A stretch of DNA of 64,000 nucleotides from Candidatus Mikella endobia (GTDB lineage: Bacteria; Pseudomonadota; Gammaproteobacteria; Enterobacterales; Enterobacteriaceae). The first letter of the stretch is position 1. The number at the start of each line of letters is the position of its first letter. The stretch is from the NCBI RefSeq assembly GCF_900048045.1, contig NZ_LN999831.1:248001-312000 (forward strand), read 5' to 3'. The translations under genes were made by a program, and so were the position numbers. Below the pieces are notes generated by a model, which was given only the letters and a program-made list of their open reading frames with translations, had not been told where the DNA came from and made no database searches. Positions 4,393 through 54,056 of the stretch are shown piece by piece.

Positions 4393-6326
4393 TCAAAGTT
4401 TTACATAGTTATATATTTTAAAGCACGCATATGGCAATTCTCGTAGAAAACTAGAGGGTCTTAAAAAGACCTCTTTACCATATATTTGACGTGTTTGTGC
4501 ATAAATAATTGTCAAGTGCTCCATAGCACGAGTAATGCAAACATACGCTAACCGACGCTCTTCTTCTAAAATTTCTTTTTCTTTTATTGAATTTGTACTA
4601 GGAAACATTTCTTCTTCCATTCCTACAATAAACACATAAGGAAACTCTAATCCTTTTGATGAATGCAATGTCATTAATTGTATGGCATCTGGTGTACTGT
4701 CTGGGTTTGAGTCTAGCACAGTGTGCGCAAGAAAATATTGCAGGGTTTTTATATTGTTATTTTATTTATAACTAAATTGTTTTGTTGCTGTTACTAGCTC
4801 TTTAAGATTATCAAGACGAGTCTGGCTTCTTTCGCTTTTTTCTTGTTCATACATTTTCAAAATACCGGAGTTTCTAATTACTTTATCAGTTTGTAAATAT
4901 AACGGCAAATCATAAGTTTCTTTTTTTAGAGTATCTAACAGTTCCCAAAATTGCCTAAGTGCAGCACTTAAGCGTTTTTTTAGTAAATTCTCTGCCAGCA
5001 ATATTTTACTGGATTGCCAAAGTGTTAGTTTTCTCTTTTTAGAAATACTCCTAATTAAATTTAATGTGCGATCACCAATTCCTCTAGGTGGCATATTAAT
5101 TACTCTTTCATAGGCAGAATTATCGTTATAGTTCGCGATAAGTCGCAGATATGAAAGTGCATCTTTAATTTCTTGACGCTCAAAAAATCTCATACCACCA
5201 TATATTTTATAAGATAGATTTGCTTGTAGTAGTGCTTCTTCCAATACACGTGACTGAGCATTATTTCGGTAAAGAATAGCGCATTCTTTAAGAGTTATAC
5301 CATGTTTCTGATTATCCTTAATACGATAATGAAATTAGCTTCATCTAGTTCATTCCAAGCATGATACAGTGTAATGGGTTCTCCTTCTATTTTTTTAGTC
5401 CATAGAATCTTTCCAAATATTCTATTATTATGAGCAATAAGTGAATTAGCTGCTTGTAAAATATTACTTGTAGAACGGTAATTTTGTTCTAATCTTATTA
5501 GCTTTACTTGAGAAAAATCATAAATAAATTGATGAATATTTGTTATCTTAGCTCCACGCCAGCCGTAGATAGATTGATCATCATCGCCAACGATCATTAT
5601 ATTACTGTTATTACTAGCTAATATCTTAATCCATTTATATTGAATTTGATTCAGATCCTGAAATTCATCTACTAAAATATTAGTAAATCTATTATGGTAA
5701 TACCTCAAAAGGTGTTGTTTATTTATCCATAATTCATATGAACGCAACATTAATTCAGCAAAATCTACTAAACCAGTACGATCACATGTTTCTTGATAGT
5801 TTTTATAAATATATTGCCAAGTAGTTTCAGTAGAATCTATTACCGATTGCGGACGTAAACCTTCATCTTTTTTTTTACCTATATACCACCTAGCTTGATT
5901 AGGTGTCCACTTTTATCTATATTCATGTCACGAATAATGCGTTTTAATAAACGTAGCTGATCTTCTCTATCGATAATCTGAAAATTTTGCGGAAGATTAG
6001 CATCCTGATAGTGGGAACGTAATAAGCGGTAAGCTAATCCATGAAAAGTTCCAATCCACATGCTATTTTGTCGTTTAATATTTATTCTGAGAATAGATTC
6101 TATACGATTTAGCATTTCAACAGCTGCCTTATTAGTAAAAGTTGCTGCAATTACTGAAGAAGGAGAACATTTTTCCACAGATAATAACCAGGCTGGCTAT
6201 ACGATGTACTAAAACTCTAGTTTTACCGCTGCCAGCGCCAGCTAGCACGAGAAAATTACCTCTAGGTGCAGCTACTGCCTTCCGTTGTTTATTATTTAAA
6301 TTTTTAAGTATATTATAAAATTCCAC
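4393..6326 (-). pseudogene. uvrD: DNA helicase II (UvrD), broken
   Basis: UvrD is the 3'-5' helicase of nucleotide excision and mismatch repair. The reading follows E. coli UvrD (not Rep): [22 protein letters not shown] near the N-terminus (Walker A), [47 protein letters not shown] and ITRAMEHL in order. Four lesions break it: a frameshift near 6180 after the helicase Ia motif region, a one-base loss in an A run at 5911-5914, a one-base loss near 5325-5330, and an in-frame TAA at 4762-4764. About 80 C-terminal residues are also missing after a PSSFLRELP motif. All motifs remain readable, so decay is recent. Expression of a working helicase is very unlikely. Confidence 0.93.
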
Positions 6327-6403
6327 AATTCACCTTGAAAATATAGATTTTTAATCATAAAAGGCTACTACTTTATGAAATTTCAAAACAGCAATTCTAT
6401 TTT

Positions 6404-6823
6404 TTAGAATGACGTTAATATTTCTATTTTAGCTACTTCAGCATTATTCCCACCGAAAATTTTTACTCATTTTCCTGTTTCAAGATCTTTATAGTGTTCT
6501 AAAAAATGTAGAATTTGTGCCTTCAGTAATGAAGGCAAATATCCTTGATATTATCTTCGAATGCGGTACAGCAACAATCTTATAATCTTCTCAGTAATTT
6601 TTAGCATTCATATCTGGTGACAACGAATTACAGATCTTGCCGTGGATATCGGCACTCACACGTATCCTGAATCCCCAGATAGAAGGGAATATATCCATCA
6701 TGAAACATCATTGTAGACATCGTAGCGCCGCTTTTCGTATTTGATAGGATCAGCATTAGCTGGAATTTCAATAATTCAATAGATATTTTTTGATGTATTT
6801 TTCATTGCTGGTACTTAATTCAT
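6404..6823 (-). pseudogene. ppa: Relic of inorganic pyrophosphatase
   Basis: Ppa hydrolyses the pyrophosphate released by polymerases and aminoacyl-tRNA synthetases. Degraded frames on this strand match E. coli Ppa in order: VPAMKNTSKNIY, then IIEIPANADPIKYE (near-identical to the family signature), LSGDSG, SVIRC, then LKAQILHFLEHYKDLETGK, NNAEVAKIEI and a terminal TAA. There are several in-frame stops (one just after the start, one in IY-stop-II, one in GK-stop-VK), frameshifts and deletions; only about 420 of the usual 530 bases remain. The reading is secure; that the gene is dead is equally clear. An intact family II or membrane pyrophosphatase elsewhere cannot be excluded. Confidence 0.88.
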
Positions 6824-7059
6824 TTTTTTATCTATGATAGTAGAAATGAGAAGAATCATATAACTATTTTTTACATTAGACTAAAGTTCCTGCAGAAAAA
6901 TTTTGCTTATTTTTGTTATACGAATTTAAAATTTTATAAAAGAAACTTTAACAAAGTTAAGATAACAATCTTATTGAATTTTATTTGATCTTTATCCGTA
7001 GATATAAAACTATTAGTAAAATTAAGTGGTGGTATAAAGAACTACCTACTACACTCCTA

Positions 7060-7650
7060 CTATGTAGGAGAATTACGTAGATATAATCTGTATGCTACTT
7101 TTCCTGCTACTTTTTCCTTATATATATTCCAATTTCTTGGTACTGCAGGATAGGGACTTTCTTTTTCAGTTTCGATATAAATCCAAGATTTTTGGGCAAG
7201 ATGTTGGTAATACTCCAGAAAATATACTGTTTTAGATATCATACCTTGATGAAATGGAGGATCAATAAAAACAATATCAAATTTAGCATATGATGAATGT
7301 GCTAACCAAAAATGGGTATCAGTAGTGATAACATGCGCTTGTTTGGTCTGCAATACTTGTAAATTTTTGAATAGTTGTTTACTAATTAATTTATCTTGCT
7401 CAATTAGTGTTATGCTAGCAGCATAGCGTGACAGTGCCTCTAGTCCTAAAGCACCGCTGCCAGAAAAACAATCTAAACAGTGTGCTCCCCGGATAACAGG
7501 AGCTAACCAATTAAATAAAGTTTCTCGTACTCGGTTAGGAGTGGGTCGCAAACCAGGTATCTTTGGCACTAAAAGTATACTACCACGCCACCTGCCACCA
7601 ATAATACGAATTTTTCCCGCACCATTATTTTTTTTATTGTTAGAAATCAA
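7060..7650 (-). CDS. rsmD: 16S rRNA (guanine966-N2)-methyltransferase
   Basis: Methylates G966 of 16S rRNA in the 30S subunit using S-adenosylmethionine. The 196-residue product (E. coli 198) has the substrate-binding start IRIIGGRWRG (14-23), RVRETLFNWL (40-49), the SAM-binding loop LDCFSGSGALG (59-69) and the catalytic DPPF near residue 130. In E. coli rsmD diverges from ftsY-ftsE-ftsX-rpoH; here it still diverges from rpoH, but the three fts genes are gone. An inverted repeat CTCCTAC/GTAGGAG (7054-7070) overlaps the stop codon. Confidence 0.95.
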   Translation of the reverse strand: MISNNKKNNGAGKIRIIGGRWRGSILLVPKIPGLRPTPNRVRETLFNWLAPVIRGAHCLDCFSGSGALGLEALSRYAASITLIEQDKLISKQLFKNLQVLQTKQAHVITTDTHFWLAHSSYAKFDIVFIDPPFHQGMISKTVYFLEYYQHLAQKSWIYIETEKESPYPAVPRNWNIYKEKVAGKVAYRLYLRNSPT

Positions 7651-7952: not shown

Positions 7953-8828
7953 ATGATTAAATATATGCAAGTTTTAGCTTATGTACCCCAGGGTAGTTTA
8001 GAATCCTATGTCAGGACTGCTAATACTTATCCCATGTTAACGGCAAAAGAAGAACTAGAGTTAGCTGAAAGATTACATAATCATAGTGATCTAGAGGCTG
8101 CAAAGCAATTAATATTGTCACATTTGCGCTTTGTTATTCATATTGCACGTAATTATTCTGGCTATGGTCTACCTCAAGCTGATTTAATACAGGAAGGAAA
8201 TATTGGTTTAATGAAAGCAATTAGACGGTTTAATCCTCAAGTAGGGGTGCGGCTGGTTTCATTTGTTGTTCATTGGATTAAAGCGGAAATTCACGAATAC
8301 GTATTACGCAACTGGCGTATTGTAAAAGTAGCAACTACTAAAGCGCAGCGTAAGTTATTCTTTAACCTGCGTAAAACTAAACAACGATTAGGCTGGTTTA
8401 ATCAGAACGAAGTAGAAATGGTAGCCAAAGAGTTGGGCGTAACTAGCAAAGATGTTCGGGAAATGGAGTCCCGTATGGCTGATCAGGATATAGCTTTTGA
8501 TCCCACACCAGAAGATGAAACTTCAGAAGGACATACTATTGCTCCTCTACTTTATTTACAAGATAAATCATCTGATTTTGCTGATAGCATTGAAGAGGAT
8601 AATTGGGATAATCACGCTGTTGATAAGTTAAGTATAGCTATAAAAGCACTTGATGAGCGAAGCCGTGATATCATACGTGCTCGTTGGTTAGATGAGAATA
8701 ATAAAAGTACCCTGCAAGAATTAGCTGATCAGTATGGTATTTCAGCAGAGCGTGTGCGTCAACTGGAAAAAAATGCAATGAAGAAAATACGTTTAACTAT
8801 TGAGTCCTCATCAAATATATCAAAGTAA
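7953..8828 (+). CDS. rpoH: RNA polymerase sigma-32 (heat-shock sigma factor)
   Basis: Directs RNA polymerase to heat-shock promoters. The 291-residue product (E. coli 284) aligns from the first residue. Region 2 ([13 protein letters not shown], about 77-89) and region 4 with its helix-turn-helix ([22 protein letters not shown], about 250-271) are intact, as is the sigma-32-specific 'RpoH box' QRKLFFNLR at 132-140. Ile54, needed in E. coli for homeostatic control through SRP-FtsY and FtsH, is conserved. A good ribosome-binding site (AGAGG) precedes the ATG. Convergent with serS, 22 bases apart. An alternative sigma factor retained in such a small genome suggests chaperone expression still matters, as in other insect symbionts. 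Confidence 0.97.
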
Positions 8829-10146: not shown

Positions 10147-10379
10147 AATATTCCTGTAGGTTTGATATTATTTAATAAAATATAACGCTCTATTGAATAA
10201 CTTATTAACATCGTTAAGTATTAGCTGCTTGTCATTATCTCTAACTAGAGAAGAATTCTCATCCAATAGAAGTTATTAATTGGAGCATTAATAAATATGT
10301 TATTAGCTTCTTAAAAAGAATTAAGAAGCAATTATGTATAAAGCCTCAATAAAATAGAAGTTTTAATGACCAGCGTATA

Positions 10380-10890
10380 ACTATGTTAAATTTAGCGTCT
10401 TCTAACTAACCATTGTGGTTTTTACTTTTAATTTGATGATCATCCTAGTTCTACTAGACTAGAAAAAAATTTTTTATTGCCGGCAATTAATAATAGCATA
10501 AATTGTTTTAAATTTACGTTATCGGAATTTTGTTCTAGTAACAACTATTATCAACATTATATTTACACCATTCAACAGTACTGTTGCTCATTATTACGTA
10601 TGAGAAATTTTCTCAACCAACTAATAATTAGTTGTCTACTTAATTTATTTTATTATATGCTTATAAATTGTTATCATCTAGTATAATTTAATTCAGTTAC
10701 ATGCCAGTTGAACATATTTAGGATTTTTATCCATAATTATGCTTTTCATTTTTGTATAATACTCATATTTTTCAATACCAAGTAATCAGTTGGATAAGAG
10801 AAGCTATTTACTTGGTAACAACCAGTAAGCATCCTCAGCAAAAAAAAACTATCGGTAACAAATACCATATTGATTCTTATCATTTTTTAA
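10380..10890 (-). pseudogene. lolA: Relic of outer-membrane lipoprotein carrier LolA
   Basis: LolA ferries lipoproteins across the periplasm. Degraded frames on the minus strand match it in order: an FFAEDA signal-peptide-like end (near 10840), LWIKILNMFNWHVTE (10695-10737; E. coli LWVKRPNLFNWHMTQ), then STVEWCKYNV (near 10570-10600), then NVNLKQF (10499-10520; E. coli NGNLKQF). Multiple stops and frameshifts separate the blocks. The location between serS and trxB, and the strand, are exactly where E. coli has lolA. Open frames on the opposite strand here are accidental. Edges are approximate. Confidence 0.75.
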
Positions 10891-11156
10891 AATTTTTTCC
10901 AACCAGAAACTTTTTGATCTATGTTTTAAAAAAACAGCAATAAAATTAACTTGAGAATATGTATCTGAAATTATCACTGTATAGCTAATTTTAATTATAT
11001 ATCGTATTTTAGTTTAGTTATATTTTAACATTAATTTAAAAATATTCTAATTTAGAGAAAATTTTTCTAAAATTATTTTATTTATTATGATAAAAAGTAT
11101 TTATTTATATAAATGGATTTTATGTACTAGCTATTGACACTTTTTTAATTTTTTAA
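10891..11156. other. Spacer upstream of trxB (site of lost lrp and ftsK)
   Basis: Relatives have ftsK and lrp between lolA and trxB. I see no readable remnant of either. TTGACA occurs at about 11134, but no -10 hexamer lies at a proper distance, so it is not called as a promoter. Confidence 0.5.
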
Positions 11157-15760: not shown

Positions 15761-15830
15761 TCAATTGATATTGTTTATTATTATTTATTTACATAATGAA
15801 TATTTTGAAGCATTTTATTTAAAGTTATGA

Positions 15831-16070
<240 letters not shown>

Positions 16071-16129
16071 AATTATTTTTATTGCACTATTTGTCAATAA
16101 TATGAGTAATGTTTATTTATAATCTCTTT

Positions 16130-16700
16130 TTGCTGTAACCTAAAAGTATTACAGTTGGTATGGCAATTTATTAACAATAATAACTTTTCACATACCTATG
16201 TCTAGAAGTATGTCTGATCTCCAGAGCTATTTATTTATAACAATGGAAATTCCTGCCATAACTAGCAATTGTGATATAGATGTTATCTATACTAATCTGT
16301 TCTTGGTTATGAAACAAACTTCACTATTCCATGGAATAGTGATATTTTTCACTGTTAATTATTCTTAACTTGTGATCATATTTCTGTTTCTTAATTAAAA
16401 GCATACTTCATCCCCACTTGCATTGACTAATAGATTGATAACAATATCGGCACCGTATTTTTGCAACATACCATTCCACCATCAATTTATAAAAAAATAA
16501 TCACTATCCCCATAGTACTATATTTGCTATAGCTTTTTATGCTGAGCTACTAGTGTGTTTCTGCTATAAATGGCTCACATGCTCAATACTTAGCGTCTCT
16601 ATCGAGAGTATCTGCTGCAGTAGAGCCACAATCTAACCCTTTCCCACTTCGCTGCTAAAGTTACAATCTGTAATGACAAACGAGAAATTTTTATTTCTAA
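16130..16700 (-). pseudogene. kdsB: Relic of CMP-KDO synthetase
   Basis: KdsB activates KDO for the lipopolysaccharide core. Minus-strand frames match it in order: GKGLDCG (E. coli GKPLVDINGK), TLDR...A...IAETH (E. coli VLERARESGAERIIVATDH), KLMVEWYVAK (E. coli ERLAEVVEKC), DIVINLLVNASGDE (E. coli DTVIVNVQGDE; about 16425-16470), ITIPWN (E. coli ATIPWD), DNIYITIASYG (E. coli DNFLRHLGIYG) and LE-I. Stops and shifts are frequent. In E. coli kdsB lies a few genes downstream of rpsA on the same strand, as here. Individual blocks are short, so the identification rests on their order and the location. Confidence 0.65.
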
Positions 16701-16937
16701 TGTCTTACGGTTAGGTTAGATAACAATGAAAATAGTAACAAGATAAATTAGAGAACAATCCAACTAGTTTTATATTTCACTTATTATAATACCTTGTTAT
16801 CAGATAATATCTAGTAGGGTATTAACTGATTCTTAGATATGCTGGTAAAATTTTAGCTACGTTCATATTTAGTTACCTGGTAATTTTTACTTATTCTTAT
16901 CGTTCTAAGAAGTACTGGTATTAGTAGTATTAATTAA

Positions 16938-40735: not shown

Positions 40736-41831
40736 TTATAATCCTGATTTAAGACTCGCTTCAATAAATTTATCTAAATTCCCATCTAGTACTGACTGAG
40801 CATTACGTGTTTCCATACCAGTACGTAGATCCTTAATGCGAGAATCATCAAGTACATACGAGCGAATCTGGCTACCCCAACAGATATCAGATTTAGTTTC
40901 TTCAATAGCTTTTTTTTCAGCATTTTTTTTCTGTAGCTGAAATTCATATAGTTTCGCTTTAAGCTGTTTTATTGCTTGATCTTTGTTTTTATGCTGAGAT
41001 CTATCGTTTTGGCACTGAGTAACAATATTAGTTGGTAAATGGGTAATTCTTACTGCAGACTCGGTTCTATTAACGTGCTGACCACCAGCCCCGGAGGCAC
41101 GATAAACATCAATGCGTAAATCTGCTGGCTTAATCTCTATATGAAGATCATCATCTACTTCTGGATAAATAAAAGCAGAGCTAAAAGATGTATGACGACG
41201 CCTACTAGAATCAAACGGACTTTTACGTACTAAACGGTGCACACCAGTTTCAGTACGTAACCAACCGTAAGCATATGGTCCTATTACCTTAATAGTAACT
41301 GATTTAATACCAACGACTTCTCCTTCTGATTCTTCTATAATTTTTGTTTGAAAACCATGTAATTCTGACCATCGTAAATACATTCTAAGCAACATGCTTG
41401 CCCAGTCCTGCGCTTCAGTACCACCAGATCCTGCTTGAATATCTACATAGCAATCGGCACTATCGTACTTTCCAGAAAACATCCTGCGTAATTCTAACTG
41501 TTTTAATTTATCTTCTAAAAGATTCAGTTCTTTTTGGATATCTCTAAATATTTCTTTTTCTTCTTCTGACGCTATTTGAAATATTTCTGTGATATTTTCT
41601 AAATCATGAATAAACTGATCAATAGTTTTAACAATATTATCTATAGATGAACGTTCTCTGCCCAGTAATTGCGCTATTTGGGGATTATTCCATATTTCTG
41701 GTTGTTCTAACTGGAATTTTAATTCTGCAAGACGTTCTTTTTTCAGATCATAATTAAAGATACCCCCTTAGAATTTCTATTCTTTCTGATAGATTTTGAA
41801 TACGGTTTTTTACTAAATTCATTTCAAACAT
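40736..41831 (-). CDS. prfB: Peptide chain release factor RF2, with programmed +1 frameshift
   Basis: Terminates translation at UGA and UAA. The gene starts at ATG 41831; 25 codons later an in-frame stop interrupts it and the frame continues +1 without further interruption for a total of about 364 residues (E. coli 365). The GGQ motif ([15 protein letters not shown]) and the RF2 tripeptide SPF (RKSPFDS) are intact. The residue two before the GAGGQ block is Ala-Ser, the form with alanine rather than the K-12 threonine. The frameshift site is described separately. Upstream of lysS. Confidence 0.95.
41754..41768 (-). promoter_or_regulatory. prfB +1 frameshift site, with UAA stop
   Basis: AGGGGG (41768-41763) acts as the internal Shine-Dalgarno-like element, followed by TAT CTT and then TAA (41756-41754). 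Slippage of tRNA-Leu on CTT-T gives AAT TAT GAT in the +1 frame, matching E. coli GAC TAC GAC. Spacing and codon number (after codon 25) are exactly those of E. coli, but the stop is UAA instead of UGA. Confidence 0.93.
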
Positions 41832-42010
41832 AAACTAATGTTTTCCTTAACAAAATATATATCATAACTATAAATAGAATCTATAAGTCTCGCAAATATA
41901 TATGATAATCTTATAAAATATCGATCGACTACTAGCCGGCAGAAATTTAATAAAGATATTTATGTATCGTAATTTTCTAGATTCTACAAAATAATAATTA
42001 GAGTAATAAA
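41832..42010. other. Spacer upstream of prfB
   Basis: Should contain the prfB promoter on the minus strand. No gene or strong promoter motif was seen. In E. coli recJ, dsbC and xerD lie upstream of prfB; nothing of them is readable here. Confidence 0.45.
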
Positions 42011-42046
42011 GACCTAAAATTAATTTTAGGTCTTCTTAATAAGAAG
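42011..42046. terminator. Bidirectional rho-independent terminator
   Basis: A 22-base perfect palindrome GACCTAAAATTAATTTTAGGTC (42011-42032; arms of 11) is followed on the plus strand by TTCTT and on the minus strand by TTTATTA. A second small stem (CTTCTTA/TAAGAAG) is adjacent at 42031-42045. It lies downstream of the degQ relic on the minus strand and could formerly have ended that gene. Confidence 0.6.
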
Positions 42047-42182
42047 AATGAGATTCTATAAGTTCAATTTAACAGATGCTGATAATATTGTAGTTTTTTG
42101 AGGAAAATACGTTCTTGTAATCATAGAAAAATATTAGTTTCTCCCCTAACGATATTAAGCGCTATTACTGCCTATTTTTATC

Positions 42183-42520
42183 TCAAAATTTACGTAATGG
42201 AGAGATAATTTTGTATTTTTTCATGATGCCAACTCTTATATCACCTTTTTGCCAACAAATTAAGGCTACAGATTTTACTTGAATACCTTTTGTGCTGTCT
42301 TTTAATTTACTGTTACGAAAAATAGAGGCACCTTGTAGTTCTGAGAATATATTCTTTATTCATAGTAGCAAAGATACTTTCATCCCGAATTACTAATACA
42401 GTTTGCAATTTACTATGGCGTAGCAAACCTATTTTTATAGTTTTTCCAGTAGTGGTTGTACCAACTTTTACTCTTAGTTCAGCAAAACTATTAAAACTAT
42501 TTTATCAATAGTTGGACTCG
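42183..42520 (-). pseudogene. degQ: Relic of periplasmic protease DegQ
   Basis: DegQ is an HtrA-family serine protease with two PDZ domains. Minus-strand frames read NSFAELRVKVGT...GKTIKIGLLRHSKLQTV (E. coli NSFAELRSRIATTEPGTKVKLGLLRNGKPLEV), then LQGASIF...KLKDSTKGIQVKSV (E. coli LEGATLSDGQLKDGGKGIKIDEV), then QKGD-R-GI, ending at TGA 42183. These are the PDZ1 end and PDZ2; the protease domain is no longer readable. In E. coli degQ lies near rplM-rpsI on the opposite strand, exactly as here. Confidence 0.85.
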
Positions 42521-43569
42521 AAAAAGTATTATACTAATATTTTGCTCTGCATGTTAAAATAGGTAATGAAAAAAATTCAATATATTTATTGTAATTTTGT
42601 TTAATTTTAATTTATTTTTTACTACTTATGTAGTTAAGTTCATATTGATGGCATTAATAATAATTGATAACTTTAAGAAATATTATATATTTTCTTTTAA
42701 ATTATAAAATCTATCTCGTATTCATTATTTTCTACATTAATTGTGTAAAATTTTCGTCTTACTTTAAGTATTACTATTAACTATAGTAGAGAAATTTTTT
42801 CTAGAATAAGAATAATTTCTCTAATCTAAGAGAGATATTAAGCTCAGCTACATCAATATTAAATTAATAATGCTGCTTTTACTTTATCAGAAAAAATAAT
42901 TACTAAAGATACTTCGCTGGTTAGTTGAATATTTTTATTTTGAACTAACGAAAATATTTATACTAAATAGTATTTTTCTAAAGTAGGTAGTATTCAAAAA
43001 TTTTTATAAAGTATAATTTAACTATCTTAATAGTTCAATTATAATCAAGTGAATTTATTCATAATTAATTATTTAAAAAACTATTTTTAGCGTATCAGTT
43101 AGCTATTATTAGCTTCTAATTGAATTTAGTATCTTACTATAAGTAACTTAGTTATCTAAAATAAGATGAGCCATTCTATTAGAATATTTTTTTATAATAG
43201 AAAGATGATATTTTTATCAAGATATCATCTTCAAGTAACATAAATATTGTATTAGTATGAGAGGATAGATTCAAATTTAAAGTAGTATTAATACTGTCTA
43301 TTTCATTTAGAAGAGCAACAAAATTTAAATGAAAAATATTGAGAAAATATAAAATTACTATATTAACTACAGTAAAGTAAAACTTAATCTAGTTTTAGAA
43401 TTGAAGTATTTATAATAAATCATTTATATATTTAAAAATAAAAATTAGTTATAATACTTGCTATTTTAGCAAGAATAATTTTTTAATTACCAATTAGTGT
43501 AACTAGAATAAATTTAAATCTTTAGATGTTTATTAATTAACGTGTAATTTAATATTTAGGTAATAGTTT
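42521..43569. other. 1-kb spacer upstream of rplM
   Basis: Relatives have the degQ 5' part, yhcB (zapG) and yhcM (zapE) here. I could not read any of them. Near rplM a TATAAT (43450-43455) is followed by a 7-base stem CTTGCTA/TAGCAAG (43457-43473) and AATAATTTTTT, which could be a promoter with a 5'-leader hairpin or a terminator. The rest is featureless and extremely AT-rich. Confidence 0.5.
43457..43473 (+). other. Hairpin in the rplM leader region
   Basis: Perfect 7-base stem (CTTGCTA/TAGCAAG) with a TTT loop, followed five bases later by a T run. It lies just after a TATAAT box and about 100 bases before rplM. It may be part of an rplM leader or a terminator for an older upstream gene. 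Confidence 0.4.
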
Positions 43570-52453: not shown

Positions 52454-52762
52454 ATATTTTTTATCAATATATATAGTTATTTATATTAACATAAATTAGA
52501 TACTTCTAATCATCTAATAGATGAAATCTACTTTTTTTTATTATTGAATATCTCTCTAAATTCATATGTTAGTGCAATACAATATAAATATTGTATAAAT
52601 TTATAAATAAATAAACTATTTTAGTCAGAATATATATAATATAGTAGTAATAAATATTGTAAATTCTTTATTGTTATTTGACGATAAATAATATTGTTCA
52701 TAACATTTTTATAGAGAAATTTAAATTGTATAAGTTATCAAAAGTATTAAGTTTTTTAAAAA
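52454..52762. other. Spacer between dnaX and the ffh relic
   Basis: Divergent 5' ends of dnaX (minus) and the dead ffh (plus). apt, which precedes dnaX in E. coli, is not readable. Very AT-rich, with no motif recognised. Confidence 0.45.
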
Positions 52763-53954
52763 ATGTTTGATAATTTATCCGTTTCTCGTGCATATGAGAT
52801 AATATTAGCGGCAAAGACCACATGAGCAAGAAGTACGTAAGATGTGTAGATAGCACGCAATACCCACTACCAGTAATCCAGAATTTTATTCTCAGAATCA
52901 AAAAATTTCTTGAAGACTGAACAAGGTATTAATATAAATACTATTTTAGTAAAAATAATACGCGCTATGCTATGGGTAATGAAAAAAATGGTTTAAATAT
53001 AGAAACATAGATACCAGCAGTATGGTGATTACTAAAAGTAAGAAAAACTACAATTGTTAGTAAGATAGGAAAAGATATACGTTAGAGGAAGAAGAACAAA
53101 ATACTTGTGGTATCATCTAAAGTTTCTCGTTCTGTTGCCATCAACAAATTTTTAAAATAGTAGATATAGTACTCTATTGAGTAGCAGTTATGCCAAGCGT
53201 TAATTTTACGATATACTTTTAGTAGATACCCGCTGGCAGATACGTAAATAAAAAATGATGGTATTATAGCTATCCCACTATCAAATTAATAAAAAACCGA
53301 GGCTATTATTGGACAGGATGCTGCTAATAGTGGTAAACGGTTTTTACCATTAACTGGTATTATTTTAACTAAATTAGACAGCGATACTCATAGCTGTACT
53401 TTAAGTATAATATTTTACTGGAAAACCTATCAAATTTCTAGTAGTAGGTGAGAAAAGTGATTAGAGCCTTTTTATTCATAAAAATTAGCTAGTTGTATAT
53501 TTTTAGCGATATTTAATCATTAATTAATGATCTTGAAAGAAATAAAGATCGCTATCGTGTAAAAAAATTGATCAGCAACCTGAAATAAGTAAATATTTTA
53601 ATATTTTCTATTTTTTAAATAAAAGAAAACAGATTCTTCATGTAGGGGGTATTTCTAGCATCATGAACAAAATATATCATAATATTATCTAATTTCAAAA
53701 TGCAGATAATATTAAATTACAGATAAACGATCGATATCGTACATATCGAAGTAATTATAAATTAAATTACTGTAAAAGAGCGTATTAATCTATAATTGAT
53801 AAAAAATTCGCCAAAAATAAGTAGAGCTTTCGGTTCTAGCATGCAAATTAAGGACGAACTTCTTAAAGCAATTTTATAAGATGCAGTTTCTGCTAACGGA
53901 ATAGCAAAAATGATTCCCAATCTAAAATGGATAATTATTACTGTAATTAAATAG
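52763..53954 (+). pseudogene. ffh: Relic of signal recognition particle protein Ffh
   Basis: Ffh is the GTPase of the SRP, essential in E. coli for inserting inner-membrane proteins. Plus-strand frames match in order: ATG-FDNL start (E. coli MFDNLTDRLS), KKNKILVVSSKVSRSVAI (E. coli KKKVLVVSADVYRPAAI) near 53090, FYDILLVDT near 53205, GQDAANSGKRFLPLTGIILTKLDSDT near 53310-53390 (E. coli [29 protein letters not shown]), GKPIKF-like block, VHIEVIIN...VKERI near 53735, then FGSSMQIKDELLKAIL and IAKMIP at the end. Dozens of stops and shifts, no frame longer than a few dozen codons. It precedes rpsP exactly as in E. coli. Confidence 0.93.
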
Positions 53955-53995
53955 TTGTTAACTATCTAAAAAATAGAACATTATATTGATTGCTA

Positions 53996-54023
53996 TTGAC
54001 TATAAAACAGGTAGTATTATATT
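53996..54023 (+). promoter_or_regulatory. Promoter of rpsP-rimM-trmD-rplS
   Basis: TTGACT (53996-54001), a 16-base spacer and TATATT (54018-54023) give a good sigma-70 pair about 80 bases before rpsP. It lies after the ffh relic, so the operon is independent of the dead gene. Confidence 0.6.
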
Positions 54024-54056
54024 ACTTTAATTAACAATTTAGGTTACTGATTTAAG

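What the first reader, a model, noticed from the sequence alone, without database searches (positions are those of the whole stretch)
6404..6823. Inorganic pyrophosphatase gene is a relic
IIEIPANADPIKYE and LLKAQILHFLEHYKDLE are unmistakable family I pyrophosphatase sequence, yet stops, shifts and deletions destroy the frame. Ppa is essential in E. coli because pyrophosphate would stop tRNA charging and polymerisation, and this genome keeps many synthetases.
Basis: partly seen in the sequence, partly recalled or inferred. Interest (0 to 1): 0.68.

Follow-up and report, generated by a model that had tools for sequence, protein, structure and literature searches.

The report
Dead pyrophosphatase gene in nested symbiont
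A tiny insect-symbiont bacterium still carries the wreck of its only pyrophosphatase gene, normally indispensable for clearing a waste product of making proteins and DNA, so its waste must be cleared from outside or simply tolerated.

Summary
Window 6403-6823 (minus strand) is a ppa (family I inorganic pyrophosphatase) pseudogene: 13 deletions and no insertions against the same-genus gene, several stops, and loss of the catalytic DGDPVD stretch. It sits in the same gene order (uvrD/rep - ppa - rsmD - rpoH) as the intact gene of that relative. The refuter fails: in the complete 352,837-bp genome I found no other PF00719 match, no H+-PPase, no family II PPase, no PFK and no HAD-hydrolase hit. 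The genome still makes pyrophosphate (seven tRNA synthetases in this window alone, plus RNA polymerase). All 294 other sampled genomes of the family, down to 200 kb, keep a full-length ppa match, so within the family this loss is unique in the sample. It is not unique among symbionts: genomes matching Evansia muelleri (357,498 bp) and whitefly Portiera (280,822 bp) lack family I and H+-PPase too; the Evansia-sized one also lacks family II. Best reading: a recent, genuine loss of an 'essential' enzyme, tolerated because pyrophosphate production is slow and removal happens outside this genome (host or partner). The disposal route itself is inferred, not shown.

The parts
6403..6823 (-). ppa pseudogene (family I inorganic pyrophosphatase); 13 deletions, stops, catalytic DGDPVD stretch lost
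6730..6823 (-). relic 5' piece, still reads IIEIPANADPIKYE; an in-frame TGA precedes it
6407..6545 (-). relic 3' piece, reads SLLKAQILHFLEHYKDLETGK*VKIFGGNNAEVAKIEILTS (the Trp codon has become TGA)
4393..6335 (-). uvrD/rep-type helicase relic next door, split over several frames; the relative's copy is open for 661 aa
7060..7650 (-). rsmD (intact), other neighbour; same order in the relative with intact ppa
7953..8828 (+). rpoH (intact sigma factor), conserved flank

Best explanation
No canonical pyrophosphatase is left in the genome (shown). The cell still makes pyrophosphate by charging tRNAs and making RNA and DNA (shown from gene content). Inferred: it survives because it grows very slowly and pyrophosphate is removed outside its own genome. 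Most likely pyrophosphate leaves a leaky, partner-dependent envelope and is hydrolysed by the insect's soluble pyrophosphatase; second most likely, the host enzyme is imported into the symbiont, as shown for MurF in another mealybug.
For: Single broken PF00719 match in a one-contig genome rated 98% complete. No PF03030, PF02833, PF00365 or PF00702 matches, with positive controls ringing in all four searches. Syntenic intact ortholog in the same-genus genome. Flat codon-position divergence and deletion-only gaps. Seven tRNA synthetases open in the window: SerS, MetG, PheST, ThrS, LysS, CysS, ValS, and RNA polymerase. Other host-bound symbionts without family I or H+-PPase exist (sizes). Host MurF is found in the Moranella cytoplasm in Planococcus citri (PMC12176269).
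Against: No gene, signal or transporter that would carry pyrophosphate or a pyrophosphatase was shown. The nearest relative, with an even smaller genome (298,471 bp) and, if it is Trabutinella, the same nested arrangement, keeps ppa, so nesting alone does not make the gene dispensable. The Tremblaya partner and the host genome could not be searched. An unrelated enzyme with side activity on pyrophosphate cannot be excluded.
Confidence: 0.6

Rival explanations
1. The nested partner Tremblaya, or the host through import, supplies a pyrophosphatase protein to this symbiont, making it dependent on a foreign enzyme for a core housekeeping step.
For: Protein import from host to the inner mealybug symbiont is documented for MurF (PMC12176269). 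All canonical pyrophosphatases are missing here.
Against: Not tested: neither Tremblaya nor the host genome was available. Tremblaya's gene set is extremely small (0.14 Mb, PMC12176269). Portiera- and Evansia-sized genomes lack family I and H+-PPase too and those symbionts are not known to be nested in this way, so import into a nested cell is not needed to explain such losses.
Confidence: 0.25
2. The cell tolerates high pyrophosphate: slow growth, adenylate kinase pull and spontaneous or side hydrolysis by other enzymes keep tRNA charging going without a dedicated pyrophosphatase.
For: Genomes with the sizes of Evansia and Portiera do without family I and H+-PPase and keep RNA polymerase.
Against: ppa is essential in E. 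coli (PMC9959109), and every other sampled genome of the family, however small, keeps a full-length match.
Confidence: 0.2
3. The frame breaks are assembly or sequencing errors, or are corrected by transcriptional slippage, and a working enzyme is made.
For: Frameshift rescue in A/T runs is known in other AT-rich symbionts (from memory). No reads were available here.
Against: Thirteen multi-base deletions, several stops, loss of catalytic codons and loss of codon-position bias, next to intact genes of normal divergence in the same stretch.
Confidence: 0.02
4. A non-homologous replacement pyrophosphatase, such as a HAD-type or family III enzyme, is encoded elsewhere in the genome.
For: Such enzymes exist in other bacteria; family III is mentioned in PMC9959109.
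Against: PF00702, PF02833, PF03030 and PF00365 find nothing in this genome, while controls ring. Families not covered by these models were not searched.
Confidence: 0.08

Closest known systems
Family I soluble inorganic pyrophosphatase (E. coli Ppa, PF00719)
   Same: Residual peptides, gene length range and syntenic place match; IIEIPANADPIKYE is identical to the G033 copy.
   Different: Frame destroyed, DGDPVD catalytic stretch lost, roughly 120 nt missing; it cannot make the enzyme.
Pseudogenes of otherwise essential genes in extremely reduced insect symbionts
   Same: Small deletions and stops in one gene amid intact neighbours; a second relic (uvrD/rep) lies next to it.
   Different: The gene lost is one that all 294 other sampled family members keep.
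Pyrophosphatase-free symbionts (genomes the size of Evansia muelleri and Portiera)
   Same: No family I and no H+-PPase in a genome that still encodes RNA polymerase; no family II in the Evansia-sized one.
   Different: There the gene gives no match at all; here the relic is still readable, so the loss is recent and can be dated relative to a sister with an intact copy.

Membership tests
Family I inorganic pyrophosphatase (as a pseudogene of it) | Sequence homology to PF00719 | tested here: met
   E = 6.5e-5 on the C-terminal piece; tblastn E = 8e-25 with the relative's Ppa
Family I inorganic pyrophosphatase (as a working enzyme) | Catalytic D-x-D-x-x-D stretch (DGDPVD) and intact frame | tested here: not met
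   Stretch and frame lost; the three Asp are invariant in 25 compared copies
Family I inorganic pyrophosphatase (as a pseudogene of it) | Orthologous position | tested here: met
   uvrD/rep - ppa - rsmD - rpoH in both genomes
Pseudogene under relaxed selection | Loss of third-position bias in divergence | tested here: met
   0.196/0.120/0.184 versus about 0.08/0.04/0.19 for most intact genes
Pyrophosphatase-free cell | No family I, family II or membrane pyrophosphatase in the genome | tested here: met
Pyrophosphatase-free cell | No pyrophosphatase activity in the cell, or pyrophosphate removed from outside | not testable with these tools
   Needs enzyme assay, localisation and metabolite measurements

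The most novel reading that the evidence does not exclude
A bacterium that charges its own tRNAs has handed the removal of pyrophosphate to another organism's enzyme, imported across several membranes into a nested symbiont: an organelle-like dependence in a universal housekeeping step.
Probability: 0.2. Interest if true: 0.85.

Novelty: new member of a known kind. Interest (0 to 1): 0.5.

Why it matters
Pyrophosphate hydrolysis is textbook-essential because it pulls tRNA charging and nucleic-acid synthesis forward. A complete genome with many tRNA synthetases and a freshly dead ppa, next to a sister genome with a live one, gives a clean natural experiment on how a cell can do without it, and on whether hosts or partners take over core chemistry of a nested symbiont.

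Tried and rejected
Another intact pyrophosphatase: none found by family I, family II or H+-PPase profiles. PPi-dependent phosphofructokinase or HAD-type replacement: no PF00365 or PF00702 match. Sequencing error or slippage: rejected on the number and kind of lesions. Naming the genome through genome contigs: the scan may leave out the window's own record and gave only more distant relatives, such as Gullanella. Husnik and McCutcheon 2016 was not held. Searching Tremblaya: no genome of its size appeared in the listed class samples, and papers on it did not mention pyrophosphatase in their main text. A Pfam query with a mistyped ffh piece gave nothing and is not used (protein 4). A promoter/terminator scan of 6300-7100 gave no more sites than shuffles.

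Full report
What is there. The window is bases 248001-312000 of a one-contig genome of 352,837 bp, rated 98% complete. Window 6403-6823, minus strand, aligns along almost the whole length of the ppa gene of the only other sampled genome of the same genus (G033, 298,471 bp). The tblastn match is E = 8e-25, with stops inside. The nucleotide alignment shows 13 deletions in the relic and no insertions, an early in-frame TGA, a Trp codon turned into TGA, and the disappearance of the DGDPVD stretch whose three aspartates are invariant in all 25 compared copies. The placement of individual gaps in the middle is uncertain; the conclusion does not depend on it.

It is a pseudogene of the resident gene. 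The order uvrD/rep - ppa - rsmD - rpoH is the same in G033, so this is the native copy and not a stray fragment. Divergence from G033 is nearly flat over codon positions (0.196, 0.120, 0.184), whereas the intact neighbours show the usual excess at third positions (for example rpoH 0.076, 0.035, 0.191; serS 0.084, 0.028, 0.213). Third-position divergence is like that of the intact genes, as expected for the native copy diverging at the background rate. The neighbouring uvrD/rep-type helicase is broken too, while G033 keeps 661 open codons.

Is there another pyrophosphatase? None was found. PF00719 has a single candidate in the genome, the relic. The H+-translocating family PF03030 and the family II domain DHHA2 PF02833 give nothing, with positive controls ringing in each search. 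PFK (PF00365), which includes the pyrophosphate-dependent kind, and the HAD hydrolase family PF00702 give no match either. Families outside these models were not searched.

Does the cell make pyrophosphate? Yes, from gene content: SerS, MetG, PheS and PheT, ThrS, LysS, CysS and ValS are open in this window alone, and RNA polymerase is present.

How unusual is it? In 295 sampled genomes of the family every one has a PF00719 match. This genome's match is E = 6.5e-5 to the relic, and the weakest of the other 294 is 1.7e-39, in a 200-kb genome. Of 24 small-genome relatives checked in detail, 21 have no stops in the gene and three have TGA codons; those lie at Trp columns, which suggests a changed code and not decay (one of the three also has a TAA at the end of the match). 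Across the class, 281 of 369 genomes have the family. Of 20 listed without it, 11 carry an H+-PPase and 3 a family II enzyme. One without any of the three has exactly 357,498 bp, the published size of Evansia muelleri. Two more of its family, one of exactly 280,822 bp, the published size of Portiera from Trialeurodes vaporariorum, lack family I and H+-PPase: they are missing from the list of PF00719 matches as far as its genome table goes. Family II was not tested in those two. So life without a canonical pyrophosphatase seems to exist among insect symbionts, but in this bacterial family the case at hand stands alone in the sample.

Who is it? From memory, 352,837 bp is the size of 'Candidatus Mikella endobia', 298,471 bp that of Trabutinella and 538,294 bp (G083, ppa intact) that of Moranella. 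A held paper gives 0.35 Mb as the smallest Sodalis-allied genome, citing Husnik and McCutcheon 2016, and places Mikella next to Trabutinella (PMC11032189). The name is therefore probable and not proven. If right, the cell lives inside Tremblaya inside a mealybug bacteriocyte.

How it may work. Shown: the gene is dead and nothing canonical replaces it. Inferred: slow growth lowers pyrophosphate output, and removal happens beyond this genome, most simply by escape of pyrophosphate to host enzyme, otherwise by import of a foreign enzyme. Import into the inner mealybug symbiont has a documented precedent, MurF in Planococcus citri (PMC12176269). The sister genome keeps ppa, so nesting alone is not sufficient; the Evansia- and Portiera-sized genomes suggest it is not necessary. 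In E. coli ppa could be deleted only when another pyrophosphatase was supplied (PMC9959109), which is why the loss is worth following up. A survey of core symbiont metabolism found an inorganic pyrophosphatase among the reactions common to all once the six smallest networks are removed (PMC3543179), which fits loss being confined to the extreme end.

Verdict. Observation confirmed, interpretation supported, novelty modest: a new and unusually legible case of a known kind, the loss of an essential gene in a host-dependent bacterium.

Noticed in passing
window 52454-54056 (+): Fragments resembling Ffh (SRP54), e.g. GQDAANSGKRFLPLTGIILTKLDSD, lie just upstream of rpsP-rimM-trmD-rplS, the usual place of ffh: a likely ffh relic, another gene essential in E. 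coli. Pfam SRP54 match is weak (E = 0.005, below cut-off).
   Followed up: partly
window 4393-6335 (-): A uvrD/rep-type helicase gene beside the ppa relic is also broken into several frames, while the same-genus relative has 661 open codons.
   Followed up: partly
L049, L050, L051 (genomes of 258-305 kb, genus g102): Their ppa genes contain TGA at positions where other copies have Trp, suggesting TGA = Trp in this group of tiny genomes of the same family.
   Followed up: no
L061 (G312, 357,498 bp), L080 (G462, 280,822 bp), L081 (G570, 351,658 bp): Genomes with the sizes of Evansia and Portiera lack family I and H+-PPase; this is not mentioned in the main text of the papers searched.
   Followed up: partly
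whole window: Only about 71% of the window is covered by the intact genes counted; several non-coding stretches of about 1-2 kb (e.g. 10147-11156, 15761-16937, 41483-43569 in part) may hold more relics.
   Followed up: no
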